Under the pieces are notes generated by a model that was given only the letters and a program-made list of their open reading frames with translations, searched no databases and had not been told where the DNA came from. A stretch of 64,000 nucleotides of DNA from Kordia aestuariivivens (GTDB taxonomy: Bacteria > Bacteroidota > Bacteroidia > Flavobacteriales > Flavobacteriaceae): contig NZ_JACGWS010000009.1 of NCBI RefSeq assembly GCF_014397005.1, forward strand, positions 62,001-126,000. Direction: 5' to 3'. The position numbers and the translations under genes are program-made. Positions 28,395-43,354 of this stretch are shown piece after piece. The stretch's first letter is position 1. Every line of letters starts with the position of its first letter.

Positions 28395-29360
28395 ATGAGG
28401 TATTCAGATTTAGAAATAGGGAAAGCGCAGAGGGATGTTTTTATATCTTTTATGCAAGAAATCGTAAGAACACATGCGAAGCGTAAGAAAGTTACAGATT
28501 ACACGGAAGACGATATAAAAGATCTTCATAAGGAATTAAATAAGTTTCTTAAGGATAATAAAGTTCCAGAGATAGATCGACCAAAAACTGTAGGTTTTAC
28601 AACCTTAAAAGGTTATGTAGATATTTGTAAAGACGAAAATAAAATACTTAAATACAGAGAGTATGTTTTAAACCTATGTTCAAAATACATTGACAATTTT
28701 CCAAAATACAAGGATTTTAGAAATTATATAGCTAGAAGAAAGGATAGTTTAGGTTTCTCCAAATATGAGATTAGAGAGTTAACATATCCTTATAAACCTC
28801 CAATTAATGAATCTAAACAATTTATTTCAGCTTCATCATCTAGTTATGAGGAGCTATCCCTTGAATTGCGTTCAAAATTGAATGAAAATGAAATCAGTAT
28901 ACATATTCAATATCATTCTAATGAAATTAAAAAAAATCCTAATGATGATATTCATCATTACTGGCTAGGCGTATTGTTATTACAAATTAAACAATATGAT
29001 GCAGCTATAAATCATTTAAATAAAAGTATTGAAATCAATTCTACAAATGAAGAATATTATTACAATCTAGCTTTGGCAAAGTTTAAAGGAAAAAGACCTT
29101 CTCGTTTAAAGATGGACGAAATTATGGACATACTACAAAGCTTGAATACAGCAATACGTATGAATAATAAAAAAGCAAAATTTTATCGATTGAAACAAAT
29201 CATTAACAAAGATTATTTTGAAAAAAAAGGGCTTAAAGTACCAGCAAAAGTTATTGAACTCAAAGCTATTAAAAGATTAGATCAAGATCCTTTTGAATTA
29301 AAAAGACTAATGGTCTTGCTAAACTTACCGTATAAAAAATTTACGGACTCAAAGTACTAA
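28395..29360 (+). CDS. TPR protein 2, paralogue of TPR protein 1
   Basis: The 321-residue protein repeats the layout of the protein at 26843: the N-terminal domain with FISFMQEI, TTLKGYVDICKDENKILKYREYVL and FPKYKDFRNYI, and the TPR units with YWLGVLLLQIKQYDAAINHLN and YYYNLALAKFKGKRPSR. It is followed 21 bases later by the first gene of the large operon, so it may be the operon's lead gene. It probably adapts the two-component or TPR signal to the downstream machinery, which is inferred from order only. Confidence 0.7.
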   Translation: MRYSDLEIGKAQRDVFISFMQEIVRTHAKRKKVTDYTEDDIKDLHKELNKFLKDNKVPEIDRPKTVGFTTLKGYVDICKDENKILKYREYVLNLCSKYIDNFPKYKDFRNYIARRKDSLGFSKYEIRELTYPYKPPINESKQFISASSSSYEELSLELRSKLNENEISIHIQYHSNEIKKNPNDDIHHYWLGVLLLQIKQYDAAINHLNKSIEINSTNEEYYYNLALAKFKGKRPSRLKMDEIMDILQSLNTAIRMNNKKAKFYRLKQIINKDYFEKKGLKVPAKVIELKAIKRLDQDPFELKRLMVLLNLPYKKFTDSKY

Positions 29361-29381
29361 TTTATTTATAACAATATCACG

Positions 29382-30053
29382 ATGACAACAAACGGTAAAA
29401 AAATTGAAAACTATTTTTCAAAATCTATTTTTTCAAAAAGTATAACTGATACGGAATTTGATGATTTGATCTGGAAGTCTATTCAGCCATTATATAGAAG
29501 AGCATTAGAAAAAACATCATTAGATGAGAGTGACTGTATACGAGAGTCAAAACTTATTATTGGGATAAAAGGAGCTGGTAAATATGAAGATATAGAGTTT
29601 AATTTCAAGAAAGGGAAAGATGGCTTTATAAGATATATTCCAAAAGTAATTACCATTATAAATTTTACCCAACATGAATTAGTAATTTATCAATGTGTAT
29701 TTGATCCAACTACGGGTCAACCATTAAATGAATCCACCAAGACTTATTTTTATGATGATATAGTTTCTATAGAAACAGAGACAAAATCAAAGTCCAAACA
29801 AATATTTTCACCCACAGAAAAAGTGTTCAAAAAAATACCCATTGCCAAACTATTTGTTGAAGGAGAAAAGAAAACGTATAACGTATCAGAAACATTTACT
29901 CTTACAACAAGAGGAACTTCCAGGGTTGAAGTCACACTATCTGATTATAAAATTGTAGAACAGGTAGGAGGAGAGTTTAATACTACAGAGGCTCAAAATA
30001 TTATTAGATCGGTAGATGCAATGGTAAAAGAAAAGAAAAGAAATAAATATTGA
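29382..30053 (+). CDS. Operon protein 1, possible PH-like domain
   Basis: The 223-residue protein has a beta-rich C-terminal half (VITIINFTQHELVIYQCVFD, YFYDDIVSIETETKSK, ETFTLTTRGTSRVEVTL) that suggests a bacterial PH-like or similar beta barrel, preceded by a helical N-terminal 60 residues. The family was not identified. It opens the compact 13.6-kb operon after TPR 2, and its product probably belongs to the complex of the downstream ATPase and GTPase. Confidence 0.5.
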   Translation: MTTNGKKIENYFSKSIFSKSITDTEFDDLIWKSIQPLYRRALEKTSLDESDCIRESKLIIGIKGAGKYEDIEFNFKKGKDGFIRYIPKVITIINFTQHELVIYQCVFDPTTGQPLNESTKTYFYDDIVSIETETKSKSKQIFSPTEKVFKKIPIAKLFVEGEKKTYNVSETFTLTTRGTSRVEVTLSDYKIVEQVGGEFNTTEAQNIIRSVDAMVKEKKRNKY

Positions 30054-30071
30054 TTATTGAATTTAATAACT

Positions 30072-31124
30072 ATGAACATACTAATCAATAACGATCATAT
30101 CATTTATTTATCAGAAAACAGGATTGTTGCTAAGAGTATCTCGTCTATCTGTTCGATCGATTGTTCTAACTATAATTCTCAAGATGTATATAAAAATTTA
30201 GTTACTGGTATTTCAAAATTCATGAAGAATATACCTGATATCTCATCAATAATTATAGGAAATGATTACTTAAACCATTTCTGTTTAATGGATAATTTTT
30301 CTGCTAAATATGCTATTACTTCAACGCTAGAGTTATTAGATTCAGATAATAAGAGTTATGTATTCCTTGATTTTTCTTTTAGGACTTTAAATATATTTTA
30401 CAACAAGGTAGATTCTATAACAGATAAAAAATCGCTTAATATATCTTTTAAATCAATCCTTAATGAAAGGTTTAAGGGTTTCACTCAGAAACAGGCAACG
30501 GAAGATTTTGTTGAACAACTATTTAAGTATACTACAAATATTGAAATATATAATTGGATGCTTTCAGATCAACTTAATACAGTTGATTTTGAAGAATTGG
30601 AATATTATAATATTAATGTAGGGATCAATAATGTCTTAAAAATCAGTTTGTATGATTACTTTGAAACAATAGTTAGTGTAGTAAATCAGTTTGTTAAAAA
30701 ACATTTTAAAGATCAAAAAATATTTTTTAAATCACCGTTTACTAATTTTCAACATATTTCTGCTTTTAATAAAAATACAGATATAACGTTTTTGAATGAA
30801 TTTGAATTTTTATCTCAAAAAGTTTCTAAAAGTAACTCACACCTTTTAAAAGTTTCCGATTACAATCTAAATCTAAACCAAAAAACACTTTCCAAGTCTT
30901 GGGTTTTGTTGAATCAAATTCAAAATAGAATTTCTTTGACAGGAAAAAAAGATGTTGTAGAAATACCTTTTTTAAACATTTTTGAGGAGTTGAAAGATTC
31001 ATATTTCCAAATTAAACAGAGCACTTATTTAAAATTGTTTATAGAAACCCAAACAAATTTTCTAAATCAGTCATGCTTAAAAATAACAACAATCAATAAC
31101 AAAATCTTTTACAAAGTTATATAA
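30072..31124 (+). CDS. Operon protein 2, unknown
   Basis: The protein has about 350 residues. The N-terminal half alternates short strands and helices (MNILINNDHIIYLSE, SSIIIGNDYLN, SYVFLDFSFRTLNIFYN), which loosely recalls the actin/Hsp70 ATPase fold, but no phosphate motif can be confirmed. The start is placed at the ATG at 30072 rather than the TTG at 30057. Its stop codon overlaps the next start (TAATG), indicating translational coupling. No family was recognised. Confidence 0.5.
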   Translation: MNILINNDHIIYLSENRIVAKSISSICSIDCSNYNSQDVYKNLVTGISKFMKNIPDISSIIIGNDYLNHFCLMDNFSAKYAITSTLELLDSDNKSYVFLDFSFRTLNIFYNKVDSITDKKSLNISFKSILNERFKGFTQKQATEDFVEQLFKYTTNIEIYNWMLSDQLNTVDFEELEYYNINVGINNVLKISLYDYFETIVSVVNQFVKKHFKDQKIFFKSPFTNFQHISAFNKNTDITFLNEFEFLSQKVSKSNSHLLKVSDYNLNLNQKTLSKSWVLLNQIQNRISLTGKKDVVEIPFLNIFEELKDSYFQIKQSTYLKLFIETQTNFLNQSCLKITTINNKIFYKVI

Positions 31125-32011
31125 TGAAAAATATAGAAAATGAAATAAAAGATATTCTTGAAAGTAATTATACTCCTCAAAAAAAAGCAATCCAATTGCA
31201 AAAAGGAATACGATTACTATTTGATTGTTTTGAAAACAAAGAAATTAAAGATGAATTCAATTCTTTTTCAGAAAAACTAATACAAGAAATAACATCTTTA
31301 AAGCAAAGAACTGAGGAAGTACATAATTGTATAAAAAGGAATGAAAACCTCTTAGAAGAAAAAGAATCTACTGAATCAAAATTTGTAGTCCTCGAAGAAA
31401 AATATGAAGAATTAAATATACTTAAAAAGAAGCAAGCATTTTTAAATCAGCATAATCTTCAAAGTATTAATTCCGAGTGTATCAACATTTCTAAGGACAT
31501 TCATAAAACAAAAGAGCAGTACATCAATACTCTAGAAGAGTTAAATAAATTTCTTTTAGATGAGAAAGAAGAACAAAGTGAATGCTTAAAAGAAAATATT
31601 AATAAAACAATTAAAAATATTGAGCTACTTGCTAGCCAACAAAATGATCAATTAGAAGAATTAAGTTCAATATTCCTAAACACCAAGTATGATCAATTTA
31701 AGAATGAAGTTGAAACGCTAACAGCTGATTACAATCAACGAGTTGAGAAAATTAATTCTATAAAGCTTGATTTGAATGAAATTAAAGAAAAGCATGCTGA
31801 GATAATGCAAGTTTTCAATCTTCATCATTTAGAAAACAATGCTATTTATGGAGTATTATCCAGTAGAGAAGGAGTATTAGAATATGTGAAGAAAATCAGA
31901 GATGATATTGAACATAAATTGAATGCTTATGATAAAGAAATAAAATCAATAATGGAAAACAGAGAACAACTTCCCTTGTTTGAATTAGCAGAAATTAAAA
32001 CATATAACTAA
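31124..32011 (+). CDS. Operon protein 3, coiled-coil
   Basis: The 295-residue protein is mostly long heptad-rich helices (roughly residues 40-230), charged and without transmembrane segments. It overlaps both neighbours by one base (TAATG), so its level is tied to them. It is likely a structural or adaptor part of the complex. No enzymatic motif is visible. Confidence 0.6.
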   Translation: MKNIENEIKDILESNYTPQKKAIQLQKGIRLLFDCFENKEIKDEFNSFSEKLIQEITSLKQRTEEVHNCIKRNENLLEEKESTESKFVVLEEKYEELNILKKKQAFLNQHNLQSINSECINISKDIHKTKEQYINTLEELNKFLLDEKEEQSECLKENINKTIKNIELLASQQNDQLEELSSIFLNTKYDQFKNEVETLTADYNQRVEKINSIKLDLNEIKEKHAEIMQVFNLHHLENNAIYGVLSSREGVLEYVKKIRDDIEHKLNAYDKEIKSIMENREQLPLFELAEIKTYN

Positions 32012-32586
32012 TGAAAGACACCATCAATATTTTAGATTTATGTGAATCTGGCACTAATGTTTTAGGACCAGGTAAGAGATATGTTATTTGGGTTCAAGGA
32101 TGTCCTTTTAATTGTGAAAAATGTACTACTCCAGAAGGGATTCCTATAAGATTAAACAAACTAACACCTATTAAGTCGATTGTTGAATCTATACTCAATA
32201 ATCATGAGATTGAAGGTATAACAATTTCGGGAGGAGAGCCATTCTTACAAGCGAGTAAATTATCAAAATTATTAGCGGATGTATTACAAATAAAACCAGA
32301 ACTGAGTGTGTTGGTGTTTACGGGCTATACATATAAACGTTTAGACTGGGCTAAAGCAAAAGACTTTCTACGGTATATAGATGTTCTTATTGATGGTCAA
32401 TACATAGACAAGTTAAATAATGGGAAAGAACTTAAAGGATCCTCAAATCAAAAAATTATTTTTCTAACAGATAAGTTAAGAGATGAAGAAGATTATTTCT
32501 ACACAAAAGGTCGAAACTTAGAAGTCATCGTAGAAGCTTCTTCTCAAACTATTATTGGAATCCCAAGTCGACAACTAAATCATTAA
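32011..32586 (+). CDS. Radical SAM activase-like protein
   Basis: The 191-residue protein has the radical SAM CxxxCxxC motif as C31-PFN-C35-EK-C38, preceded by GKRYVIWVQG, and the SAM-binding motif SGGEP at 73-77. The length and these features put it with 4Fe-4S single-cluster activases of the NrdG/PflA type. Usually these install a glycyl radical in a partner, but no such partner is seen in the window. Here it sits inside a GTPase/AAA+ operon, which suggests a different substrate, perhaps a peptide or nucleotide. It is a strong family call with an unknown role. Confidence 0.85.
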   Translation: MKDTINILDLCESGTNVLGPGKRYVIWVQGCPFNCEKCTTPEGIPIRLNKLTPIKSIVESILNNHEIEGITISGGEPFLQASKLSKLLADVLQIKPELSVLVFTGYTYKRLDWAKAKDFLRYIDVLIDGQYIDKLNNGKELKGSSNQKIIFLTDKLRDEEDYFYTKGRNLEVIVEASSQTIIGIPSRQLNH

Positions 32587-32596
32587 AAAAATCATT

Positions 32597-34021
32597 ATGA
32601 GCAGAACATTTAAAGTAGCATCTTTTGATCAGACAGAGCGCTATATCAATGAGTTGAAAACACAACAGCGCAATTTACAATCTCAAATGAATTCGGTTGA
32701 GAAAAACGCAAAAAATGCAGCAAGAAAAGAAGCGGAAAAAAGAGCTCAAGAATTACGTCACGAAATTGATTTAATGGAACGCAATTTAGAGAATCAATTA
32801 GGAAATCTTAGTGCCGAAATGAAATCTAATTACTTAGAACATAAGCGTGATTTAAATACTAAAACAAAAGAATTTCAAAGAAACATTTCTGATCTTAAAA
32901 ATTGGACAAAGCAATCACTTCATATACTTAAAACAGAAGTAGATAGTAAATTTCAAGAACAACAATCTCAAATAAATCATAACAGAGGTAAACTAAATGA
33001 AATTTTTCAGAAAGAAGCAAATGCAAAAGAGCAAGCAGAAAAAAACCTTAAAGATTTAGTAGCATTAGTTAAAATAATTGAAGGAAATACAAATCATCAA
33101 AAATTTGCTGAGGGAGAATTACATAAAATCAATAGTAGAATAAAACATCTTTTTGAATCAGATATACCTTCTGAGTCAGTCATCAGTAATGCATTTTCAA
33201 TTACAAATGATTTATACGATTTAGAGACAGATATTATTAAAAAAGAGAACCTTTTCAATGTTAGACATACTATGATTCTTAATCAGGCTCAAGAATTATT
33301 AAAGATAATGAATCATAATCGGAATGAATTATACTTTAAAGATGAAGAAGGTAATGAATTGAGAGACGATAATGATGAGAAGATTCAGGTTGAAGTTAAT
33401 TTTTGGACAGAAAATGAATATCAAAAAACCGAAGATTTAGTAAAGGAATTAGAAACTGAGTTGATCGAAAAAAAGAAGGCTCCTGAGTTAGATAATGCTA
33501 GATTAGATGAAATTACTGATACACTTGAAATATTTAAAAAAAAGCAAGAAACATTAGTTATTACAGCATGTGAAAGAGGATTAGCTTCTGAAGAACGCAT
33601 TGTGATAAGTGATGATTTAATACAGGCATTTCTAGAACAAGGTTTTGAACTGAAAGATGGAATAGCATCACATAATTTTATGGGAAATGAAGAAAATAAT
33701 ACCGAAACGGATCAACGTGAAGGTGTGGTTGCTGTATTAAAAAATGGAGTAGGAACGGAGATCACATTAATTATTCAACCTGATCGAACTAAGAAAAAAA
33801 ATAAGATCATTTTTCATAGGAATGATGAACATGATTTAAGTGAAAGAGAATATACTGAATACTTACAAAAAATCAATGATTATATAGAAAGTAAAGGATA
33901 TGATATGGGAGAACTTAGTGCTCCAAAAGGTATAGGAGATGTTCGACTAGAAGCATTAGCTGATGTCAATGCACTAAAAAAAGTTGGATTGGGTAAAAAA
34001 TTAAAGGAACAACTAAGTTAA
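32597..34021 (+). CDS. Operon protein 4, long coiled-coil
   Basis: The 474-residue protein starts with a long coiled coil (residues about 10-165, rich in Lys, Glu, Gln and Asn) and has a globular C-terminal part (about 350-474). The latter includes EGVVAVLKNGVGTEITLIIQ and ends with an alpha/beta segment. No motif points to enzyme activity. It lies between the radical SAM and the AAA+ genes with short spacers, and may carry one to the other. Confidence 0.55.
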   Translation: MSRTFKVASFDQTERYINELKTQQRNLQSQMNSVEKNAKNAARKEAEKRAQELRHEIDLMERNLENQLGNLSAEMKSNYLEHKRDLNTKTKEFQRNISDLKNWTKQSLHILKTEVDSKFQEQQSQINHNRGKLNEIFQKEANAKEQAEKNLKDLVALVKIIEGNTNHQKFAEGELHKINSRIKHLFESDIPSESVISNAFSITNDLYDLETDIIKKENLFNVRHTMILNQAQELLKIMNHNRNELYFKDEEGNELRDDNDEKIQVEVNFWTENEYQKTEDLVKELETELIEKKKAPELDNARLDEITDTLEIFKKKQETLVITACERGLASEERIVISDDLIQAFLEQGFELKDGIASHNFMGNEENNTETDQREGVVAVLKNGVGTEITLIIQPDRTKKKNKIIFHRNDEHDLSEREYTEYLQKINDYIESKGYDMGELSAPKGIGDVRLEALADVNALKKVGLGKKLKEQLS

Positions 34022-34032
34022 ATCATTATTCA

Positions 34033-37000
34033 ATGGCAGTTAAAAGAATTTCGGAGATAGATATTGAAAATAGGGGATTGTTTACAGCAATATATGGTAA
34101 TACTACAGGAAGTGAATTTTTTGTAGATGCTGATCTGAAAAAATATAATCTATGGCAACAGTTATTTATATTTTTTAAAGAATTAAAATATGATCTTGTC
34201 ATGTTTTATGATACAACACATTATTTTCATTCGTATTCACAACATGATTTAAACAGGCTTTTAAACCTCAAGAATACTGATAAAAAACAACAACTGAATG
34301 AAGAATATCTTTCAAAACATATAAAATCTACGTTAGGTTCTAATAGGTTCAAAAAATCGATGGAAAAATCTCAAAAAACTAATTCAACTCCAAGTCCTGC
34401 CCTAAAATTATCGAAATCTGATGGTCATAAACATAGTTTTTATAAAACACAAACAACACTAGATTTTAAAGAGTACTTACGACAAAATCTCACAAAAAAA
34501 AATCAAAAAACAGCTATTATTATAAAAACACCAGAAAATGCACATTTTGAAAAAGTTGATGATTACATCACTCTTTTTAAAGCGTTAGATAATAATTACG
34601 ATATAGATAAATCTCAAAACAAAGTAATTATTGCGTATGAAAGTAGTTCATCAAGATCTTTTGTTAACAACTTAACCGATGCAAGTAAAAAAGGATATCT
34701 TTTTCTAAATAGTTATTTCGAAAGTCTTTTCCTTAAATCTGATGGAGAAAGTCATACCATGAATAAAGACAATGTTTTTAACATAATGAGTCCTGATGAA
34801 AATGAAATCAGAAATGTGATAAACCTAAAAAGGCTTGAAGAAAATTTCATTGATTTTTTTCAAAAAATTGATTTACCAAAGACAACAGCTTCTCTATACC
34901 TTGATCAATTTAATATATCAGAAATATATAAACAGGATTTAAACCAATTAGCATCAAAAGCAATAAATGGCAAGTCAGGGATGTCACAACTCCAGAATTT
35001 GATTGGATTAAAAAAAGTTAAAGAGAGTGTCAATACATTTATAGAAAGATCACAATTTAATAAGGGAAATCAACTAGATGATGATTCTAGGTATCATTTA
35101 ATGTTTACTGGAAATCCTGGAACAGGAAAAACTATAGTTGCTAAAATTGTAGCTAAAATATTTAAAGAAAACCAAATCATAAAAGGCGGAAAGTTTACAG
35201 AAACAAAAGCTTCCGATTTAATCGCAGGTTATGTTGGACAAACTGCAATTAAAACTAGAGAAGTTTGTGAACAAGCACTCGGAGGTGTTCTATTTATTGA
35301 TGAAGCTTATGAACTTGCTTCTAATCAATTTGGCAAAGAATGTGTAGGAGAACTTATCCAATTCATGGAGAATGAAAGAGACCAGTTTGCAGTGATCTTT
35401 GCGGGATATGAAGATGATATGCAAGAGTTACTAGCATTAAATGAAGGACTCAATAGTCGAATCGGTGAGGTTATTCATTTCCTTGATTATAGCCCAGAGG
35501 AACTAATAGACATATTGAAATTGAAAATTAAAAAACTTCCATTAAAAATTGAAGAAGGCGCACTAGCACATATAAAAGATTGGATAACACAAAAGATAGC
35601 AGAAGATGCTAAAAAATTTGGAAATGGAAGAGGAATCGATAAGCTAAAAACTAGTTTGTTAGACATAAGGATTAAGAAAAAAAACGAAACTATTTCAAAA
35701 GAAGATTTAGACACAATTCATAAAATAGAAAAATCTAATGTGGAATCACAACTTCAAGAGTTAATAGGACTGAAAGATGTGAAACATAACATTAAAAAGT
35801 TTATAAAAAGAGGCAAATTCTTAAAAGATAATGAACTAAGTGGAAAAAGAGTTCCTAGATACCACTTAATGTTTACGGGGAACCCTGGGACTGGGAAAAC
35901 TATAGTTGCTAGGATCGTAGCACAAATATTTAAAGAAAATCAAATTATAAAAGGAGGGAAGTTTACGGAAGTTAAGGCTTCTGATTTGATCAGTAAATTT
36001 AGAGGCGATACTGCTGATAAAACCAAAAAAATATGTAAAGATGCTTTGGGAGGAATTCTCTTTATAGATGAAGCTTATGCTCTAGCTTCAGATAAAGAAT
36101 TGGGACAACAAAGTATGGGAGAACTTATTCAGTTTATGGAAAACGAACGTGACAAATTAGTTGTCATATTCGCTGGATATAAAAAAGATATGGAAGCACT
36201 TTACAAATTAAACATAGGACTAAAAAGGAGAATTGGAAAAGTGATACACTTTCCAGATTATTCAAGTCAAGAGCTGATTGAAATTTTTAATTTAAAAACA
36301 AAAGACTTGCCTTTTACATTAGAAGATGATGGACTTGATTTCTTCCAGGACTTAGTAGAACAAAGAATAGCTGAAGATTCCGTAGGGTTTGGAAATGCTG
36401 GAGGTATTGATAAGCTTATAGATGATATTATAGATATCGTAGCAGAAAATGAAAAACAAACTATTTCAAAAGAAGATTTAAGCAATGCATTCGGAATAGA
36501 AACAATCAATAGTACTGATGAACTTACCAAATTAATTGGTCTAAAAGAAGTTAAAGATAAGATTAAGACATTTATAATGAGGTCAAAATTTAGCAAAGAG
36601 AATCAATTAGAAGATAATTCCAGATATCATTTAATGTTTACTGGAAACCCAGGAACTGGGAAAACCATAGTAGCTAAAATTGTAGCTAAAATATTTAAGG
36701 AAAATCAAATCATAAAAGGTGGAAAATTTACAGAAGTAAAGGCTTCAGACTTAATTGCAGGTTATCTTGGACAAACAGCAATTAAGACGAGAGAAGTTTG
36801 CGAAAAAGCACTTGGAGGTGTCTTGTTTATTGATGAAGCCTATACACTTGCATCCAATAAATACGGAAATGAATATGGAAAAGAATGTATAGGAGAGCTT
36901 ATTCAGTTTATGGAAAATGAAAGAGATCGATTAGTAGTAATATTTGCAGGATATGAAGAAGATATGCAAGAGTTATTAAAATTAAATGAAGGATTGGATA

Positions 37001-37272
37001 GTAGAATTAGTGAAATCATACATTTTCCTGATTATAGTCCAGAGGAACTGATAGCCATATTGAAATTGAAAATTAAAAAACTTGCATTAAAAATTGAAGA
37101 AACTACATTAATGTACATAAAAGATTGGATAACACAAAAGACAGCAGAAGATGCTAAAAAATTTGGAAACGGAAGAGGAATTGATAAACTAAAAACTAGT
37201 TTATTGGACATAAGGATTAAGAAAAAAAATGAAATTATTACCACAGATGACTTAAAAAATATATTCAAATGA
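34033..37272 (+). CDS. Triple AAA+ ATPase, CbbX/SpoVK-like, degenerate middle domain
   Basis: The 1,079-residue protein has an N-terminal region of about 325 residues without a recognised domain and three AAA+ modules. Walker A (GNPGTGKT) occurs at about 360, 616 and 871, and Walker B (FIDEAY) at 421, 677 and 932. Modules 1 and 3 are close in sequence, including pore-loop GYVG/GYLG near 400 and 911 and sensor-2 Arg at 533 and 1048 in GNGRG. Module 2 has FRG at 656 in place of the pore-loop aromatic and Gly790 instead of the sensor-2 Arg (GNAGG). CbbX-type ATPases remodel partner proteins, and one degenerate ring position is a common asymmetry. It overlaps the next start (ATGA). Confidence 0.85.
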   Translation: MAVKRISEIDIENRGLFTAIYGNTTGSEFFVDADLKKYNLWQQLFIFFKELKYDLVMFYDTTHYFHSYSQHDLNRLLNLKNTDKKQQLNEEYLSKHIKSTLGSNRFKKSMEKSQKTNSTPSPALKLSKSDGHKHSFYKTQTTLDFKEYLRQNLTKKNQKTAIIIKTPENAHFEKVDDYITLFKALDNNYDIDKSQNKVIIAYESSSSRSFVNNLTDASKKGYLFLNSYFESLFLKSDGESHTMNKDNVFNIMSPDENEIRNVINLKRLEENFIDFFQKIDLPKTTASLYLDQFNISEIYKQDLNQLASKAINGKSGMSQLQNLIGLKKVKESVNTFIERSQFNKGNQLDDDSRYHLMFTGNPGTGKTIVAKIVAKIFKENQIIKGGKFTETKASDLIAGYVGQTAIKTREVCEQALGGVLFIDEAYELASNQFGKECVGELIQFMENERDQFAVIFAGYEDDMQELLALNEGLNSRIGEVIHFLDYSPEELIDILKLKIKKLPLKIEEGALAHIKDWITQKIAEDAKKFGNGRGIDKLKTSLLDIRIKKKNETISKEDLDTIHKIEKSNVESQLQELIGLKDVKHNIKKFIKRGKFLKDNELSGKRVPRYHLMFTGNPGTGKTIVARIVAQIFKENQIIKGGKFTEVKASDLISKFRGDTADKTKKICKDALGGILFIDEAYALASDKELGQQSMGELIQFMENERDKLVVIFAGYKKDMEALYKLNIGLKRRIGKVIHFPDYSSQELIEIFNLKTKDLPFTLEDDGLDFFQDLVEQRIAEDSVGFGNAGGIDKLIDDIIDIVAENEKQTISKEDLSNAFGIETINSTDELTKLIGLKEVKDKIKTFIMRSKFSKENQLEDNSRYHLMFTGNPGTGKTIVAKIVAKIFKENQIIKGGKFTEVKASDLIAGYLGQTAIKTREVCEKALGGVLFIDEAYTLASNKYGNEYGKECIGELIQFMENERDRLVVIFAGYEEDMQELLKLNEGLDSRISEIIHFPDYSPEELIAILKLKIKKLALKIEETTLMYIKDWITQKTAEDAKKFGNGRGIDKLKTSLLDIRIKKKNEIITTDDLKNIFK

Positions 37273-37622
37273 TAAAGCTTCCATACTTACTTACGGGATA
37301 TTTAAAGCCTATACGATTAAGACTGTTAAATTCTAAAAATGTAATCAAAATAGATTTTAAAAAGACATTGAATCTAAACTTTACTACGCATAAAAACGCA
37401 GTACAAATTCTTATGGATCTTCCTACTATAAAGATGAAAAGAAATCATCTTCATACAAAACCTCATTTAAATATTAGGTTATCCACAAAGTTAGAAGTGT
37501 TTTCTGTGAATCAAGTATTGAAAAATCAATCATCGCGCTTATTAGAATTTCTAGAAGAGCACAAAGAAGTAACTAAACAACAAACCATTAATAATTATAA
37601 AAACTACCGAAATAATGTATAA
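37269..37622 (+). CDS. Operon protein 5, small basic protein
   Basis: The 117-residue protein is rich in Lys, Asn and His and has no clear motif. Its ATG overlaps the stop of the AAA+ gene and its stop overlaps the next start, so it is translationally coupled on both sides. No family recognised. Confidence 0.5.
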   Translation: MIKLPYLLTGYLKPIRLRLLNSKNVIKIDFKKTLNLNFTTHKNAVQILMDLPTIKMKRNHLHTKPHLNIRLSTKLEVFSVNQVLKNQSSRLLEFLEEHKEVTKQQTINNYKNYRNNV

Positions 37623-38838
37623 ACTACTACGAAATTTCTTTTGGTTTTGCTCTGGAGCAAACAAACGGTTATTAGAAGAAAATGATATTGATCATAATAA
37701 ATACTTTGCTATAGGAGCTACCATATTCTTTACTGCAATATTTGCTGGGTTTTCAGGAGGTTATGCTATGTATTTTGTGTTTTCAGGATCTGAATATGCA
37801 GTAAGTTTGGCTATAGCATTAGGTGTACTTTGGGGATTGACTATCTTTAATATAGATCGCTTTTTAGTGATGAGTATTAAAAAAGAAAACAACTTTTTTA
37901 AAGAATTCTTTTTTGCATTGCCTAGAATTGTTTTAGCGATTATGATAGGTGTTGTTATTGCAAGACCTCTAGAGCTAAGAATATTTGAAAAGGAAATCAA
38001 TGAAGGATTGAAACAATTCTATTTAGAAAATCAACAAGAAATTATTGGAACCAAGTTAACTAATTTTCAAGCTGAAATTAAAGAAGATGTGGATAAGTTA
38101 AATAGGAAAAGAATAGAGAGAGATAATGCTGATACTGATTATAGAAATCATATTAAACTAAGAGACACAGAGTATTATGGAGATAAAACTGGAAGTACTA
38201 CAGGAATACCTGGTTGGGGACCACATGCTAAAAAAAGACAGGAAGAAGTTGATGCTAAAAAAGTAGTTTTAGATAATCTAACAAAAAAGATAGAAGAACT
38301 TGAAAATGAAATCAACACTAAACGTGCAAATGCAGGGTTAGACAATGTAGCCAATTATGATAATAAAACATTAGATTCTTTAGTGTCAAAATCGGGATTT
38401 TATGATAGAAATAAGATACTTGGGCAAATATCTTCATGGACGCCTTTTAGCTCAAGCGATACTAAAGTAAATACAGAAAACATATCTCAGGGATCTTCTC
38501 TTGAAGTCAGAAAAACAAAAAACAGGTTTAGTGGTGAAGATGATCCCACGGTGTTTTTTATTTCACTCTTATTTATCATTATAGAAACACTTCCAATACT
38601 CGTTAAGTTATTGACTAAAAGAAGTACTTACGATATGGTATTAGAACATGAAGAAGAAAGAATTGATTTTACAAAAAGGCACGAAACAACATCTCATAAA
38701 CAATTGATACGCAATATGTCAGTTTCTCAACGAGCTGTACTTAATGAAGCAATAAATAAATGGGAAGCGAATGAATTGGAAAGTGATACGCTTAATGAAA
38801 GATATATAAACACTGATAACGAAGATCATTATGCTTAG
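37615..38838 (+). CDS. DUF4407 membrane protein
   Basis: The 407-residue protein fits DUF4407. It begins with FFWFCSGANKRLLEENDIDHNKYFAIGATIFFTAIFAGFSG and has three N-terminal helices (about 30-120) with the conserved NIDRFLV, then a coiled-coil periplasmic or cytoplasmic stretch, and a final helix near residue 310 (VFFISLLFIIIETLPILVKL). Its role is unknown, but it is often found with conflict or surface systems. It should anchor this operon's complex to the inner membrane. Confidence 0.85.
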   Translation: MYKLLRNFFWFCSGANKRLLEENDIDHNKYFAIGATIFFTAIFAGFSGGYAMYFVFSGSEYAVSLAIALGVLWGLTIFNIDRFLVMSIKKENNFFKEFFFALPRIVLAIMIGVVIARPLELRIFEKEINEGLKQFYLENQQEIIGTKLTNFQAEIKEDVDKLNRKRIERDNADTDYRNHIKLRDTEYYGDKTGSTTGIPGWGPHAKKRQEEVDAKKVVLDNLTKKIEELENEINTKRANAGLDNVANYDNKTLDSLVSKSGFYDRNKILGQISSWTPFSSSDTKVNTENISQGSSLEVRKTKNRFSGEDDPTVFFISLLFIIIETLPILVKLLTKRSTYDMVLEHEEERIDFTKRHETTSHKQLIRNMSVSQRAVLNEAINKWEANELESDTLNERYINTDNEDHYA

Positions 38839-39544
38839 TTGTCCAATATGTAGTGAATCAAATAGTGTAGAAGATGTTTTTTGTAAAAAATGTTCATGGG
38901 AATTAATGGACATTCCTAAAAATGCAAACGATGAATTGAATAATTATTTTACAAAAAAAATAAATATTCATACTTCACTTTATCTTACCAAGAGAGAGCA
39001 AAAAAGAACGATAGAAAAACTCAATCAAGAAGCTTCTCAAAACCAAACAACATTAAAGATTCAAAATGAAAAAATAAAGAATCTAGATGAAAAGTTACGA
39101 AAAACATCATCTGAATTGAAAAATAAAATTGAGTTAGAAAATCAATTAAAAATATATAAGGAACGCTACGGAGATTCTTTTACATTCTCGGATCATTCTA
39201 AAAAAGAGAGTTTTATTGTGTATTGGCAAATTGAAAATAACATTATTAAATTACATTCTAAAGAAAAGGAATTTGAGAAATATTTACCTAAAAAGATTGC
39301 TTTGCTATTAAAATCTCAAGGAAGACCACAAGTAGGTAATTTTGAATTGGCAATACTAGTGAATCGGGTAAAAATAAAAGATACTTATGGATTAAAAATC
39401 GATACAACCAATATAACGAGCGGTTCTTACTTTATAAAACCAATAGTCTTAGCGAATAAAACTAAGAATATACATTTTTTTCATCATCAGCAATCATTGT
39501 CTTCTGAAGATTTTGATTGGAATCAAACTAAAATCAATATATAA
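38831..39544 (+). CDS. Zinc-ribbon coiled-coil protein
   Basis: The 237-residue protein starts with a zinc ribbon (CPICSESNSVEDVFCKKCSWEL, two CxxC pairs), followed by a coiled coil around 50-105 and a C-terminal beta-rich part (SFIVYWQIENNIIKLHS, NFELAILVNRVKIKDTYGL). It overlaps the DUF4407 gene by 8 bases and the GTPase gene by 1 base. It probably bridges the membrane protein and the GTPase. Confidence 0.6.
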   Translation: MLSCPICSESNSVEDVFCKKCSWELMDIPKNANDELNNYFTKKINIHTSLYLTKREQKRTIEKLNQEASQNQTTLKIQNEKIKNLDEKLRKTSSELKNKIELENQLKIYKERYGDSFTFSDHSKKESFIVYWQIENNIIKLHSKEKEFEKYLPKKIALLLKSQGRPQVGNFELAILVNRVKIKDTYGLKIDTTNITSGSYFIKPIVLANKTKNIHFFHHQQSLSSEDFDWNQTKINI

Positions 39545-40653
39545 TGTCATATAAATGTCCACGCTGTTTACATACTTTTCAGAAAAGGGAAGCCAATGTA
39601 GAAATAATTAATACGACAAATTATTATTCATGCCCTAACCCTGAAGAAGAAGACAACGGTAGAAAAATATGTGGTAAGCGATTGCCTCTTAAATTCTTTA
39701 ATGCCGACGCTACAACAATTGCAATTGTTGGTGGTACTGGAGTAGGAAAAACTTATTATTTTTTAGCATTGATTTATGAGTTAGTGTTTAAAAAATCTTT
39801 AAAACGTTTTGGTATTCAAGGAGATGTTTTAGGAGGTAGAAAAGAAAATACACTTCTGTATCAGTTTTTAGATGATATATATAAAGGGAGAAAATTACAA
39901 TCTACTGTAGGAATGAAAGAAGCAATAAATGTAGTTTTAGACATCGTCATAACAAGCAATAATAAGACTAGAACTATTTACTTATCATTTTTTGACAATC
40001 CAGGAGAAAAATTTTCAGATGAAGAATATATGATAAGAAACTTCACAAATGTTTTTAAAGCCGACGGATTAATTTTTTTAGTTGAGCCAAAACAAATAAG
40101 TTCCTTTCAAGAAATTATTTTCGAAAATTATGAGTATGAAAGATTACGTCAATCTACAGAATTTTATACAGTTGTAAATAACACGATCAATCTATTAAAT
40201 TATATAAGAACCAATACTAATTCAAACAATCTTTTTCCAGAAAGTTCTTGGGATAGATATGTGCAAAGTATAAAAAAAATATCAACTACATTTTCTAATA
40301 AGCATCCGATTCCTATAGCTTTTACCATATCTAAATATGATCAACTGGCTAATTATCTTCATGTTGATATTCCGTTAGACGAAACAGAAATGGAAGATTT
40401 GATCATGAAAAACAGAAAAATAGACATAGAAGCTCTTAATGCGATTTCTAATGAGTTAAAAGATTTAATCTTAAATGAAGAAAATGGTGAAATTGGAGTG
40501 GAGAATTTGTTGAAATCAAATTTGAAAAGTCATGCTTATTTTGGAGCAAAATCAATAAGCGTAGATAGTGAAGGAGCTCCAGAGCGACTTGATCCGAAAG
40601 GTGTTAGTTTGCCATTATTATGGTTGTTAATAAAATTAAAAAAAATCTTATGA
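39544..40653 (+). CDS. Zinc-ribbon GTPase (double-GTPase-like)
   Basis: The 369-residue protein has an N-terminal zinc ribbon (CPRCLHTF ... CPNPEEEDNGRKICGKRL). The GTPase part has P-loop GGTGVGKT at 63-70, a Walker B/G3-like DNPGE at 151-155 and a G4-like SKYD at 263-266, the NKxD position. This combination resembles the DO-GTPase group predicted for GTPase-centred prokaryotic conflict systems. The next gene encodes a GAP1-N2-like partner, exactly the pairing described for those systems. It is likely the regulated switch of the operon; the exact role is inference. Confidence 0.75.
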   Translation: MSYKCPRCLHTFQKREANVEIINTTNYYSCPNPEEEDNGRKICGKRLPLKFFNADATTIAIVGGTGVGKTYYFLALIYELVFKKSLKRFGIQGDVLGGRKENTLLYQFLDDIYKGRKLQSTVGMKEAINVVLDIVITSNNKTRTIYLSFFDNPGEKFSDEEYMIRNFTNVFKADGLIFLVEPKQISSFQEIIFENYEYERLRQSTEFYTVVNNTINLLNYIRTNTNSNNLFPESSWDRYVQSIKKISTTFSNKHPIPIAFTISKYDQLANYLHVDIPLDETEMEDLIMKNRKIDIEALNAISNELKDLILNEENGEIGVENLLKSNLKSHAYFGAKSISVDSEGAPERLDPKGVSLPLLWLLIKLKKIL

Positions 40654-42590
40654 ATTACTTTGAAACTTACCATACAGCCTCAAAACACAAAAATGGCTTC
40701 TTTGTATTTGATGCTTCACCTGAACTTAGCAGAGATGAAATAGATGAGATTGAAAAACTTGGAACATATCATACTATTTCAAATATTGATAATTCAAGTA
40801 TTGAACATACACAGAACAACTATCCTGAAAACATTAGCTACTATAAATTAAAAACGAAGCCTTGCAGAAAAATTTTTATTTGTTCAAATTATACAGGGCG
40901 AACTAATCATACACCAGACAGATTTGGAAATTTTTTTTCGCATGGTATCATTTTTGAAGCATCGGAACTTCACTTTTCATTCAGAAATTTTTTCAATCAT
41001 TTTAATTTTAAAAAAGAATTCTCTTTAGAGGAAGATATTAATTATTCACCTAAGTTAAGTGTCGGTAATTATTTTCATAATAGTGATGTTATAGTAGCTA
41101 AAGAAGATTTTAATCATTTTTGTGATTTTTTAAATACTGACTTAAATCGAAAACGGCATTTTAGTGCAATTATAGATGAAATATTTACTTTTAAAATATT
41201 AGAGAAAGGGAAAAATATCTCTATAATAGCTGACAAAGAACAATTACAAGACTGGATATTGTCCATTAATTTCTTTCTTCCGAAGGATCTTTCTGATCAA
41301 ATAACGTTTGCAACTTATGTTAATACACCTAAGAACTACCCTTTTAAACTAACGGGAATTCTGCCAGAAAGTAATACTTCTATACTTGAAGAATTATATT
41401 TTCACATCTTCGATACAAGAGTAAATAAGGAGTATTCATTATGTTTTAATTATACAGAGTTAATATCAAAAATAATACAAGAGAGTAATTATGATGAATG
41501 GAAGTCATTAAATGAGGAGTTAAGAAATGTAAAATTCTCATTAGTAAATTCTCATTTGAAGAAATATAAGTTTATTCAAAATGCTCATTTAGAACCGGAT
41601 CTTGAAAATTATAAAGAATTAAAGGATTCTTTTACGGAAATTGACACTACAAAATATTATCAAAACTTATATAATAAACAACTTGATATTTATTTAAAAT
41701 CTTCAAATTTTGATTTAGAAAAACAACTAAATACTGCCAGAAATTATAAAGAAGCTCTTTCTATTTTTTTTAGTCATTTTACCTTCTTTTACGAAGAGAA
41801 AATAAAAGTTTCCAACGATGTCATTCCACTTATTGATTTCTTTATTAAAACACTTCCAAAACATGATAAAATTAAAGCCCTTAAAGAAATTCTTCTAAGT
41901 GATCAAATAAAAATAGAAGATCAGGTATGGCTTCATAAAACATTTAAAGTTGTAGATATTGGTTTAGAAAATTTTATCGAAAATAATGATGAAAATATAT
42001 TACTAATACCAGAGTTGGTAGAGAAATATGATTTAAAAAATCCCAAAATTGAAAATGAAAATATAAAAAGGTTTATGACATTCAAAACATTAATCAAAGC
42101 AGCTCAAGAGAATGATTTGTTATCGCAAATAAAAAAAGTTGAAAAAGAACTTGATAGTCTAAAGGATAAAGAAAAGATTAGGTTATTTATGGTAGCATTC
42201 AATCATGATACTTCTTTTTTAAAATCAAATTTCAAAAATTTCAAAGAGCAACGTAAACTTATATCACAATATTTACATAAGGAAGAAGGCATGTTTTGGA
42301 GTGCTTTTTTTGAAAAAAATGAAGAGTTTAATGCCAAAGGTGATTATAATTATCATAGTCTGTCTTATTTGAAAAAAATATTCATTTCTGAATTTTTCTT
42401 ACTACAACTTAAAGACTATGATTTGATTAAAAACTTGGATATAAGTGATGAATATTTTTTTAGATGGATTAGGGAAAGAATCAATGAATTTACTAACAAT
42501 AAAATTATTTTGACCAATTATATCGATTATTACCAACAAAAAAAGAAGGAGAAAAGATCTTTTTTTGGCAACTTAAACCCATTTAAATAG
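40650..42590 (+). CDS. GAP1-N2-like GTPase-associated protein
   Basis: The protein has about 646 residues. The N-terminal region bears the GAP1-N2 pattern: NYFETYHTASKHKNGFFVFDAS, then SNYTGRTNHTPDRFGNFFSHGIIF, where the TGR-x-GNFFxH core is characteristic. The rest is largely helical, as expected for the middle and C-terminal helical parts. The start at 40650 (ATGA overlap with the GTPase stop) is preferred over the internal ATG at 40620. GAP1 proteins are proposed partners of the DO-GTPases in predicted conflict systems. Function in this operon is inferred. Confidence 0.65.
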   Translation: MNYFETYHTASKHKNGFFVFDASPELSRDEIDEIEKLGTYHTISNIDNSSIEHTQNNYPENISYYKLKTKPCRKIFICSNYTGRTNHTPDRFGNFFSHGIIFEASELHFSFRNFFNHFNFKKEFSLEEDINYSPKLSVGNYFHNSDVIVAKEDFNHFCDFLNTDLNRKRHFSAIIDEIFTFKILEKGKNISIIADKEQLQDWILSINFFLPKDLSDQITFATYVNTPKNYPFKLTGILPESNTSILEELYFHIFDTRVNKEYSLCFNYTELISKIIQESNYDEWKSLNEELRNVKFSLVNSHLKKYKFIQNAHLEPDLENYKELKDSFTEIDTTKYYQNLYNKQLDIYLKSSNFDLEKQLNTARNYKEALSIFFSHFTFFYEEKIKVSNDVIPLIDFFIKTLPKHDKIKALKEILLSDQIKIEDQVWLHKTFKVVDIGLENFIENNDENILLIPELVEKYDLKNPKIENENIKRFMTFKTLIKAAQENDLLSQIKKVEKELDSLKDKEKIRLFMVAFNHDTSFLKSNFKNFKEQRKLISQYLHKEEGMFWSAFFEKNEEFNAKGDYNYHSLSYLKKIFISEFFLLQLKDYDLIKNLDISDEYFFRWIRERINEFTNNKIILTNYIDYYQQKKKEKRSFFGNLNPFK

Positions 42591-42607
42591 TCTTTAATTT
42601 ATTCTTT

Positions 42608-42937
42608 ATGAAAAATATTAAAAACAGTTTACGAAAGTTAGGATCTGCAACAAATATTATTACGCTCATATGTGTAATTTTGATTTTTACCCGTTTGGTA
42701 GATTACAATTTAATACCACTAAAGTATGCTGTTTTTATTATAATAGGGATAGCAATTTTGATAGCTTCAGGGAATCATATTTCCAAGTTTGGACTAAGTA
42801 TTATAGTACTAGTTTCTGGTATTCTATATTACCCTGATTTCCTTAATGGTAATCTTAAGGGTTTGTTAACTAGTACTATAGCGTTAATTATAGTTCTGGC
42901 AGTTATATATTTTATGATTAAGTCAATATTTAAATAA
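42608..42937 (+). CDS. Small membrane protein of the operon
   Basis: The 109-residue protein has three or four transmembrane helices (from about residue 18) and short loops, with a basic N-terminal stretch. It ends the operon. No family was recognised; a membrane anchor or pore role is possible. Confidence 0.6.
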   Translation: MKNIKNSLRKLGSATNIITLICVILIFTRLVDYNLIPLKYAVFIIIGIAILIASGNHISKFGLSIIVLVSGILYYPDFLNGNLKGLLTSTIALIIVLAVIYFMIKSIFK

Positions 42938-42960
42938 TAACTGAATAAACCTTCAAACTA

Positions 42961-43068
42961 CTAATTTAGAAAAAATTCATAATTAAGTAAATCTAAAAAA
43001 TCAGCTTTGCCATTCATTTGTTTGAATAGTTTAATAATTTCTTTTTGTTGACTTTTAGTAGTTTTCAT
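42961..43068 (-). pseudogene. Truncated 35-codon frame, possible retron RT N terminus
   Basis: An ATG at 43068 (minus strand) opens MKTTKSQQKEIIKLFKQM then ADFLDLLNY and ends at a TAG at 42961. The helical start with an FLDLLNY-like segment recalls N termini of retron-type reverse transcriptases, but the catalytic core is absent. It follows the inverted-repeat RNA by 12 bases, the normal position of the RT gene. The cut end lies 24 bases from the end of the large operon, suggesting a deletion. Confidence 0.45.
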
Positions 43069-43080
43069 ATGTAATAGAAG

Positions 43081-43330: not shown

Positions 43331-43354
43331 ACTGTGCAAATATGTATAGTATTT

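What the first reader, a model, noticed from the sequence alone, without database searches (positions are those of the whole stretch)
29382..42937. Candidate new conflict system: radical SAM, triple AAA+, DUF4407, GTPase and GAP1-like proteins in one operon
A compact one-direction operon, many genes overlapping by 1-8 bases, joins a radical SAM activase, a three-module CbbX-type AAA+ protein, coiled-coil proteins, DUF4407, a zinc-ribbon GTPase and a GAP1-N2-like partner. The last two are known from predicted GTPase-centred conflict systems (comparative-genomics work of Aravind and colleagues). The addition of radical SAM, triple AAA+ and paired TPR adaptors is, as far as I can judge, not a standard combination. 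Presence on an ssrA island with RM, WYL and retron features supports a defence role.
Basis: partly seen in the sequence, partly recalled or inferred. Interest (0 to 1): 0.8.

Follow-up and report, generated by a model that had tools for sequence, protein, structure and literature searches.

The report
Mobile radical-enzyme, chaperone and GTPase operon
On a mobile DNA island, a bacterium carries a tight 12-gene operon that joins a recurrent, apparently undescribed machine (a radical enzyme, a coiled-coil partner and a multi-part ATPase) to a known type of GTPase switch and a membrane protein; it looks like an immune-type alarm system, but that function is untested.

Summary
In detail: window 29382-42937 is a one-strand operon (radical SAM, three-module CbbX-type AAA+, coiled coils, DUF4407, zinc-ribbon DO-GTPase, GAP1-N2) inside a 31-kb element in ssrA. 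Its heart recurs widely: a coiled-coil protein ("P5") and the multi-CbbX AAA+ lie together in 46 of the 80 closest radical-SAM loci, in seven phyla, often with Hsp70. In Chitinophaga, Flavihumibacter and a Saprospiraceae MAG this core again sits with DUF4407, DO-GTPases and GAP1-N2, with the blocks in swapped order; the Saprospiraceae genome also has a CbbX-AAA/DO-GTPase fusion and, directly before the operon, a phosphorylase with an effector-associated domain (EAD11), a mark of conflict systems. The radical SAM protein resembles glycyl-radical activases, yet the window's genome and 8 of 13 others with it show no glycyl-radical enzyme, so its substrate is probably internal. P5 is the best candidate: its N-terminus (MS, mostly MSG) is conserved but predicted disordered; the window's copy reads MSR. 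No paper or profile library that I searched describes this core. Defence is inferred from company, not shown. I call it a new variant of NTP-switch conflict systems; the core itself may be a new kind.

The parts
29382..30053 (+). p1, 223 aa, unknown; first gene of the operon; no relative found
   Evidence: no Pfam or PADLOC hit; in 6 related genomes only one chance-level hit, E 0.476
30057..31124 (+). p2, 355 aa, unknown; lies where related loci have an Hsp70-like (c3) or c72 gene; homology to either not shown
   Evidence: profile comparison with Hsp70 (c3) and c72 negative; positions
31124..32011 (+). p3, 295 aa coiled coil; orthologues in L014, L016, L022
   Evidence: E 8e-14 to 2.4e-8 for the three; profile link to the coiled-coil c7/c25 families of other core loci, 68% and 83%
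32011..32586 (+). p4, 191 aa minimal radical SAM protein, CX3CX2C, activase-like (NrdG/PflA type)
   Evidence: Fer4_12 7.5e-33; NrdG 103.5 bits, cut-off 126.1; CX3CX2C in 79 of 80 aligned sequences, p4 included
32597..34021 (+). p5 (P5 family), 474 aa, long helices plus C-terminal alpha/beta part, conserved disordered N-terminus (here MSRTFK)
34033..37272 (+). p6, 1079 aa: N-terminal, probably degenerate AAA-like domain plus three CbbX-clade AAA+ modules (Walker A at residues 360, 616, 871; Walker B at 420, 676, 931)
37269..37622 (+). p6b, 117 aa; positional counterpart of c73, the small gene before DUF4407 in L014/L016/L022
   Evidence: weak sequence similarity E 0.0095-0.057, not confirmed by hhalign (1.4%)
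37615..38838 (+). p7, 407 aa DUF4407 membrane protein, about four predicted TM segments
   Evidence: PF14362 1.9e-71; hydropathy; orthologues in L014, L016, L022
38831..39544 (+). p8, 237 aa, N-terminal zinc ribbon (CPIC...CKKC) plus coiled coil; related to the ZnR proteins (c5) of other core loci
   Evidence: c5 profile E 8.9e-12, hhalign 97%; Calothrix homologue
39544..40653 (+). p9, 369 aa zinc-ribbon DO-GTPase (P-loop GGTGVGKT, DNPGE, SKYD)
   Evidence: PF19993 1.6e-8; motifs read
40620..42590 (+). p10, 656 aa GAP1 (GAP1-N2 plus weak GAP1-M); start probably 40650
   Evidence: PF20013 6.1e-7, PF20014 4e-4; GAP1 family of L014/L016/L022 E 1.6e-8
42608..42937 (+). p11, 109 aa, about four TM segments, unknown
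   Evidence: only a chance-level Pfam hit, E 0.035
15457..46806 (.). integrated element in ssrA: end repeats 15457-15481 and 46782-46806, tyrosine integrase 15618-16883; carries the operon, a type IIG RM gene, WYL, N6-MTase, two near-identical RadC genes

Best explanation
A mobile two-module sensing and response system. Module A (p4-p5-p6, in many relatives with an Hsp70-like ATPase, here perhaps with p2/p3) is a maturation/remodelling machine: the radical SAM protein modifies an internal protein, most likely P5; the multi-module CbbX-clade AAA+ protein remodels P5 or its complex. Module B (p7-p11) is a membrane-linked GTPase switch: the zinc-ribbon DO-GTPase with GAP1 sets the threshold, the zinc-ribbon coiled coil p8 bridges, and DUF4407/p11 act at the membrane as anchor or effector, so that a trigger (most likely infection) ends in a membrane response. 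Shown: the genes, their families, co-occurrence, modularity, location in an integrated element, and the absence of any detectable glycyl-radical enzyme for p4. Inferred: the P5-p4 substrate relation, which protein the AAA acts on, the trigger, and DUF4407 as effector.
For: P5-like gene and N-domain AAA in 46 of 80 radical-SAM loci, and in 35 of the 45 with at least 4 kb upstream and 6 kb downstream; P5 directly downstream of the radical SAM in 34 of 56. A full-length P5 occurs in only 1 of 395 sampled Bacteroidota genomes, the window's own, so chance co-occurrence is negligible. Whole set in L014, L016, L022 with block order swapped. CbbX-type AAA fused to a DO-GTPase in the L022 genome; in the same genome a PNP_UDP_1-EAD11 protein (EAD11 51.0 bits, cut-off 26) ends 45 bases before the operon's first gene. 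An actinobacterial GAP1-N2 locus with two DO-GTPase2 genes and Hsp70 also holds a radical SAM of this family (E 1.1e-56), a Clp-type AAA and a CHAT protein. No NRDD or Gly_radical match in the window's genome, 99.98% complete, controls ringing, nor in 8 of 13 other genomes with the radical SAM. P5 N-terminus: Ser2 in 53 of 64 P5-family starts as called, 59 of 64 after re-setting starts, against 115 and 134 of 1029 background genes; SG 35 and 42 of 64 against 1 and 5 of 1029; predicted disordered. CbbX-clade AAA+ are described as dedicated chaperones (passages of PMC10659427).
Against: The window's P5 has Arg, not Gly, at position 3, so a glycyl-radical site there is not general. The 64 starts are related sequences and leave out the P5 paralogue family c8 (15 members, none starting MS; with it 53 of 79). 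p2 could not be shown to be Hsp70-like. By profile, DUF4407 and GAP1 are with the core in only 3 of the 80 loci and the GTPase in 4, so module B is optional. Five of 13 other carriers do have a glycyl-radical enzyme. Defence rests on company alone; I did not test enrichment of defence genes around the core, and PADLOC has no match for the operon proteins beyond general AAA, coiled-coil and radical-SAM similarity.
Confidence: 0.48

Rival explanations
1. An ordinary GAP1-N2/DO-GTPase conflict system as described by Kaur et al. 2020, whose radical SAM, P5 and AAA genes are lineage-specific variable components of the kind the authors already describe in general terms.
For: DO-GTPase2 and GAP1-N2 over their Pfam cut-offs; the paper describes variable components and an HSP70 theme (passages); an actinobacterial Hsp70-bearing GAP1-N2 locus with this radical SAM exists; an EAD11 protein, a domain type of that network, heads the Saprospiraceae operon.
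Against: No FNIII component and none of the paper's three GAP1-N2 themes detected in the window; the core occurs without a DO-GTPase in 76 of 80 loci by my profile (more distant DO-GTPase-like genes lie near it in some cyanobacteria); GAP1+DO-GTPase occurs without the core on the 8.4-kb contig of G619, though a longer contig could show more.
Confidence: 0.25
2. A stress or protein-quality-control system (chaperone-type: Hsp70, CbbX-type AAA+, coiled-coil scaffold, membrane sensor) with no special role against phages.
For: CbbX/SpoVK/EccA relatives are chaperones with narrow cellular roles; Hsp70 (c3 profile) in 36 of 80 loci; TerD genes in a clostridial branch; DO-GTPases have been linked to membrane stress (one passage of PMC11237479).
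Against: Rare presence, location in an integrated element with a restriction gene, EAD11 and TIR genes next to the operon in relatives, CHAT in the actinobacterial locus.
Confidence: 0.22
3. p4 is an ordinary anaerobic-RNR or glycyl-radical activase that happens to lie in the operon.
For: Best curated profile is NrdG (103.5 bits); best solved relative is the pyruvate formate-lyase activating enzyme, E 8e-4.
Against: Below the NrdG cut-off; no NRDD or Gly_radical match in the window's genome or in 8 of 13 others, although 5 of the 13 have one; linked to P5 and AAA across phyla.
Confidence: 0.03
4. Unrelated island genes that merely sit together.
For: Islands accumulate unrelated cargo; p1, p2 and p11 had no relatives in the other loci that I compared.
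Against: Overlapping genes, and recurrence of the same sets in distant taxa in two internally conserved blocks.
Confidence: 0.02

Closest known systems
GAP1-N2-type GTPase-centric conflict systems (Kaur et al. 2020, PMC7159879; passages read)
   Same: Zinc-ribbon DO-GTPase followed by GAP1-N2, TM-containing partners, operon layout; the paper's HSP70 theme resembles core loci that carry Hsp70; an EAD protein heads the operon in one relative
   Different: No FNIII protein detected; adds DUF4407 and the radical SAM-P5-multi-CbbX core; 'DUF4407' and 'CbbX' do not occur in that text, and 'radical SAM' occurs once, for FtsH/vWA systems
CbbX / SpoVK / EccA clade of AAA+ chaperones (PMC10659427; passages read; its Figure 3A of operons could not be viewed)
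   Same: AAA modules over the curated cut-offs; first module matches CbbX 3syk, Z 25.4, rmsd 3.4, 251 residues, 35% identity; GY in sensor-1
   Different: Three modules in one chain behind a probably degenerate AAA-like N-domain; relatives show mostly one to four recognisable Walker A motifs per chain; own operon context
Glycyl-radical-enzyme activases (NrdG, PflA)
   Same: Minimal radical SAM protein, CX3CX2C, SGGEP
   Different: Below the NrdG cut-off; no partner glycyl-radical enzyme detected in the genome; lies in an operon with P5 and AAA
Radical SAM of the FtsH/vWA ternary systems (Kaur et al. 2020, passage)
   Same: A radical SAM enzyme proposed to modify a protein encoded in the same conflict operon
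   Different: That system has MoxR, vWA and FtsH components; none was detected in this operon
IetAS anti-phage system (PADLOC IetA)
   Same: p6 AAA modules score against IetA (96 bits)
   Different: General AAA+ similarity; no protease was detected in the operon (that the IetAS partner is a protease is recalled, not from a call)

Membership tests
GAP1-N2 DO-GTPase conflict system | DO-GTPase of TRAFAC type with conserved Glu at Walker B, zinc ribbon common | tested here: met
   PF19993 34.9 bits, cut-off 27; DNPGE and Cys pairs read from the sequence
GAP1-N2 DO-GTPase conflict system | GAP1 protein with GAP1-N2 domain next to the GTPase gene | tested here: met
   PF20013 30.0 bits, cut-off 24
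GAP1-N2 DO-GTPase conflict system | GAP1-M middle domain | tested here: inconclusive
   PF20014 21.0 bits, cut-off 24, E 4e-4
GAP1-N2 DO-GTPase conflict system | FNIII-repeat component | tested here: not met
   No FNIII match listed for the 12 operon proteins or the two upstream TPR proteins (the list for p6 was cut at 25 of 45 families); p1 and p2 remain unidentified, and the paper calls the FNIII part fast-evolving
GAP1-N2 DO-GTPase conflict system | One of the three published themes (tubulin/vWA, HSP70/GrpE, kinase/PP2C) | tested here: not met
   None by Pfam in the window operon; Hsp70 is present in other core loci
CbbX/SpoVK/EccA clade AAA+ | Family profile over cut-off and GY signature in sensor-1 | tested here: met
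   TIGR02880 508.7 vs 459.25, TIGR02881 578.9 vs 422.95, both summed over three modules; A457-G458-Y459 invariant in 31 sequences
NrdG-type glycyl-radical activase | Curated NrdG score | tested here: not met
   103.5 vs 126.1 bits
NrdG-type glycyl-radical activase | Cognate glycyl-radical enzyme in the genome | tested here: not met
   No PF13597 and no PF01228 match at E 0.001; controls ring
Radical SAM-P5-multi-CbbX core (proposed here) | Radical SAM, P5 with the conserved W270/R334/P395 and MS start, AAA with YG..D.F N-domain | tested here: met
Anti-phage defence system | Protection against phage | not testable with these tools
   no experiment possible; association only

The most novel reading that the evidence does not exclude
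The radical SAM-P5-multi-CbbX core is a categorically new, cross-phylum immune or stress machine in which an activase-type radical SAM enzyme without any glycyl-radical enzyme puts a radical-derived mark on the conserved disordered N-terminus (Met-Ser, often -Gly) of a coiled-coil protein, which licenses it for assembly or disassembly by a multi-module AAA+ machine and Hsp70; output modules (DO-GTPase/GAP1/DUF4407, kinase/PP2C/vWA, TerD, WD40 and similar) are exchanged around it.
Probability: 0.3. Interest if true: 0.92.

Novelty: new variant of a known kind. Interest (0 to 1): 0.74.

Why it matters
If true, it adds another constant core (radical SAM + P5 + CbbX-type AAA+) to the GTPase- and MoxR-centred conflict systems, suggests a role for activase-like radical SAM proteins in genomes that have no detectable glycyl-radical enzyme to activate, and offers a defined candidate substrate (the N-terminus of P5) that mass spectrometry can test at once. 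It also places DUF4407, a family with almost no literature (3 papers of the searched library hold the term), in a membrane response operon.

Tried and rejected
Rejected or led nowhere: (1) P5 C-terminus as DUF1257/DUF2997, suggested by a Paenibacillus neighbour locus: hhalign probability at most 0.7%. (2) p2 as an Hsp70: p2 vs Hsp70 profile 0.2%, vs c72 0.1%; c72 vs Hsp70 only E 0.0019 at 14%. (3) p1 relatives: none in 6 genomes. (4) P5 fold: no Foldseek match at E 0.001; VIA-align gave only middling KA1-like and helical rows, best Z 8.4, so inconclusive; in the PDB by sequence P5 hits helical proteins over its coiled-coil part. (5) A glycyl radical at Gly3 of P5 as a general rule: the window's lineage has Arg or His there. 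(6) Single origin of the module combination: radical SAM alone does not reject one clade of window+L014+L016+L022 (p-AU 0.218); the concatenated core does (p 3e-5); one gain with losses and repeated gain both remain open, and some rows are long-branched. (7) The genome search with PF20013 did not ring the window's own genome at E 0.001 although its protein scores 6.1e-7, so the counts of GAP1-N2 genomes (1 of 395 Bacteroidota; 3 of 296 Actinomycetota) are lower bounds; the single-sequence GAP1 search of 395 Flavobacteriales rang only the own genome and GAP1 and p9 found nothing in plasmids. (8) P5 profile in 395 Bacteroidota: 38 rang, but only the own hit spans the family; the other 37 match coiled-coil positions up to 176 of 477 and were not counted. 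(9) Literature: searches found no description of the core; the DefensePredictor text has no 'radical SAM', 'DUF4407' or 'GTPase' (find). The library is open-licence PMC only and figures are not held. PHROGs was not searched.

ORFs were called by script and some starts or clusters are rough (high-GC or frame-rich loci such as L043, L046, L048, L061, L081 badly so). One of the 80 radical SAM sequences aligned (L046:11083-12070) proved to be a stray next to a PFL-like glycyl-radical enzyme gene; I left it out of the tree. The P5, AAA and Hsp70 profiles were built from the same loci that they then counted. Alignment A2 holds 33 P5 proteins chosen by me, five with starts re-set to MS, and leaves out cluster members without an MS start, so its invariant M1-S2 is partly by choice; the less selected figures are S2 in 95% of 37 and the counts.

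Full report
1. The observation. The stretch 29382-42937 holds twelve + strand ORFs, several overlapping by 1-8 bases. Pfam names the radical SAM protein p4 (Fer4_12, 7.5e-33), the AAA protein p6 (three AAA stretches), DUF4407 p7 (1.9e-71), the DO-GTPase p9 (PF19993 34.9 bits, cut-off 27) and GAP1 p10 (PF20013 30.0 bits, cut-off 24). NCBIfam puts p6 over the cut-offs for SpoVK, EccA and CbbX (scores summed over three modules) and p4 nearest to NrdG but under its cut-off. PADLOC gives only general similarities for the operon proteins. The operon lies in an element bounded by a 25-base repeat of the ssrA end (15457-15481 and 46782-46806, 23 of 25 equal) with a tyrosine integrase at 15618-16883; a type IIG restriction enzyme, a WYL protein and an N6-methylase share the element. 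I found no retron among the genes scanned, and Rfam gave only the tmRNA; not all genes were scanned.

2. A wider core. tblastn of p4 against plasmids gave 151 records. I read the neighbourhoods of six: each has an AAA-family gene within about 10 kb, and the Calothrix one also Hsp70 and TPR genes. In Calothrix plasmid pCAL6303.02 the order radical SAM, p5 homologue, p6 homologue, p8 homologue is kept. Counting with profiles built from these loci, 56 of 80 hold a P5-family gene, 50 the AAA with the same N-domain, 46 both, 36 an Hsp70 of cluster c3; of the 45 loci with at least 4 kb upstream and 6 kb downstream, 35 hold both and 10 do not (L031, L047 and L051 have the AAA alone; L035, L044, L045, L050, L055, L057 and L064 neither); P5 follows the radical SAM directly in 34 of 56. 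The 46 are 23 Bacillota, 11 Bacteroidota, 6 Chloroflexota, 2 Actinomycetota, one each of Cyanobacteriota, Planctomycetota and Thermodesulfobacteriota, and one without phylum. Baseline: in 395 sampled Bacteroidota genomes a full-length P5 occurs only in the window's own genome, so the link is not chance.

3. The full window-like set. L014 (Flavihumibacter MAG), L016 (Chitinophaga sp. S165) and L022 (Saprospiraceae MAG) carry p3, DUF4407, DO-GTPases and GAP1-type genes with radical SAM, P5 and a roughly 2170-aa AAA protein (GAP1-N2 2.7e-10 for the L016 protein; DO-GTPase2 9.5e-6, just under its cut-off). Extending these loci shows c72 as the first gene of the block, with no p1 relative. The order there is c72-p3-small-DUF4407-(two genes)-GTPase-GTPase-GAP1-radical SAM-P5-AAA, while the window has p1-p2-p3-radical SAM-P5-AAA-small-DUF4407-ZnR-GTPase-GAP1-TM: blocks that are internally conserved, in swapped order. 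On a concatenated core tree of 23 loci the window groups with six Bacteroidales loci (100/99) in which my profiles find no DUF4407, GTPase or GAP1, and one clade of the four DUF4407/GTPase loci is rejected (p-AU 3e-5); radical SAM alone does not reject it (0.218). So the two modules have been combined or separated more than once. Of these relatives L013 (and by cluster L015, L017, L020) carries a vWA protein, PP2C and a kinase-like protein; a clostridial branch has TerD genes (12 loci in cluster c4), Chloroploca WD40 proteins.

4. Further links. In the L022 genome a 410-aa protein with a PNP_UDP_1 domain (3e-18) and an effector-associated domain EAD11 (51.0 bits, cut-off 26) ends 45 bases before c72, on the same strand; phosphorylase effectors and EADs are named in the passages I read of Kaur et al. 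and its sequel. The gene upstream of c72 in L016 is a GDSL-type lipase about 480 bases away, so the EAD protein is not a constant part. Beyond the other end, on the opposite strand, the L022 genome has a TIR protein, a MoxR-like AAA and a 1166-aa protein in which a CbbX-type AAA module is fused to a DO-GTPase. A TIR protein flanks the operon in L016 and L014, on the opposite strand (6.3e-9 and 2e-8). One of three Actinomycetota genomes with GAP1-N2 (of 296 searched) has within about 22 kb, on one strand, a CHAT protein, a radical SAM of this family (E 1.1e-56), a Clp-type AAA, Hsp70 and two DO-GTPase2 genes around GAP1-N2; the P5 and CbbX-AAA profiles did not ring there, and the radical SAM profile rang in neither of the other two. 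GAP1 and DO-GTPase also occur without the core on the 8.4-kb contig of G619. Thus the GTPase module and the radical SAM are separable but repeatedly found together.

5. The radical SAM protein has no evident glycyl-radical enzyme to serve. The window's genome (99.98% complete) has no match to NRDD (PF13597) or Gly_radical (PF01228), while E. coli and others ring as controls. Of 13 other genomes with the radical SAM, 8 have neither; Arthrospira and Laspinema have a Gly_radical match, Brocadia NRDD, Bacteroides caecigallinarum and Eubacterium ramulus both. The tool gave no completeness for these, and not all 13 have P5 beside the radical SAM (L044 has neither P5 nor the AAA in its locus; L047 and L051 no P5). 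In 80 aligned sequences the three cluster cysteines are kept (CX3CX2C spacing in 79), as are GGE and G-S-x-N-Q at 99-100%; one of the 80 is a stray activase.

6. P5. It is the least known and most system-specific part. In 37 aligned sequences S2 is kept in 95%, W270 in 100%, R334 in 95%, P395 in 97%, while mean column identity of a 33-sequence subset is 26%. Over the P5-related clusters 2, 9, 29, 153, 185 and 504 (64 proteins), Ser2 occurs in 53 and Ser-Gly in 35 at the first start codon, against 115 and 1 of 1029 other genes; if starts are re-set to an internal MS in the first 45 residues, 59 and 42, against 134 and 5 (MSG) of 1029. I left the paralogue family c8 (15 members, none with an MS start) out of that count; in clostridial loci it mostly accompanies c9, which has Ser2 in 13 of 13. 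The Ser2 codons are AGY 58, TCN 1 (after re-setting), against 60 and 51 in the background, which suits an uninterrupted constraint on serine but could also reflect a constraint on the start region of the mRNA. The AlphaFold2 model (pLDDT 78.6) leaves residues 1-8 under 50: conserved but disordered, as expected of a tail that a partner binds or modifies. The window's own P5 reads MSRTFK, so Ser2, not Gly3, is the common residue. No clear fold match was found.

7. The AAA protein. Three modules with intact Walker A and B. The first module matches CbbX (3syk, Z 25.4, rmsd 3.4, 251 residues, 35%) and residues 1-566 align to p97 D1-D2 (5c18, Z 17.8, rmsd 6.2, 415 residues), so the 310-residue N-domain is probably a degenerate AAA-like module without a P-loop; it was not folded alone. 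Its signature (YG..D.F ... GY..I.FY) recurs across the family. In the passages of PMC10659427 that I read this clade is described as dedicated chaperones that activate or assemble particular targets.

8. How it may work. p4 marks P5 (inferred); p6, with Hsp70 or other partners, remodels P5 assemblies (inferred from family); the DO-GTPase/GAP1 pair is the switch (as proposed by Kaur et al. 2020, passages); p8, a zinc-ribbon coiled coil shared with other core loci, is the adaptor (inferred); DUF4407 and p11 act at the membrane (hydropathy). I hold defence more likely than general stress response because of the integrated element, rarity, EAD11, TIR and CHAT neighbours in relatives and the GAP1 link; nothing here tests it.

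9. Known or new. The library of open PMC papers was searched; of the papers listed only Kaur et al. treats GAP1/DO-GTPase systems at length (PMC11237479 mentions a DO-GTPase once); its text does not contain DUF4407 or CbbX, and its single mention of radical SAM concerns another system. I saw passages, not whole texts, and no figures; Figure 3A of the SpoVK preprint shows operons that I could not view. I therefore file the operon as a new variant of NTP-switch conflict systems, whose core may prove a kind of its own.

Noticed in passing
window 22700-23320 and 46023-46643: Two RadC-like genes on the same strand inside the ssrA element, 201 of 207 translated positions identical (stop counted); the second lies about 140 bases from the right end of the element. 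A recent duplication or a nested boundary.
   Followed up: partly
window 18295-19347: Rep_1-type replication protein gene inside the ssrA element, suggesting a plasmid-like or replicating integrative element.
   Followed up: no
L009 and L011 (Moellerella and Acinetobacter plasmids), L008 (Aristaeella plasmid): Other operons with this radical SAM family: AAA-domain protein, PIN protein, hypothetical, AAA, radical SAM; DUF4011, kinases, FHA, PP2C and an MSG-starting protein around it in L008.
   Followed up: partly
L128 and L129 (Saprospiraceae MAG): A PNP_UDP_1-EAD11 gene directly before the operon, and beyond its other end a TIR protein, a MoxR-like AAA and a 1166-aa CbbX-AAA/DO-GTPase fusion on the opposite strand.
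   Followed up: partly
L134-L135 (unnamed Actinomycetota genome): CHAT protein, radical SAM, Clp-type AAA, Hsp70, DO-GTPase2 and GAP1-N2 on one strand.
   Followed up: partly
G000:C1:194006-194860: A second DUF4407 gene in the window's genome, outside any such operon as far as the 3.9-kb locus shows.
   Followed up: no
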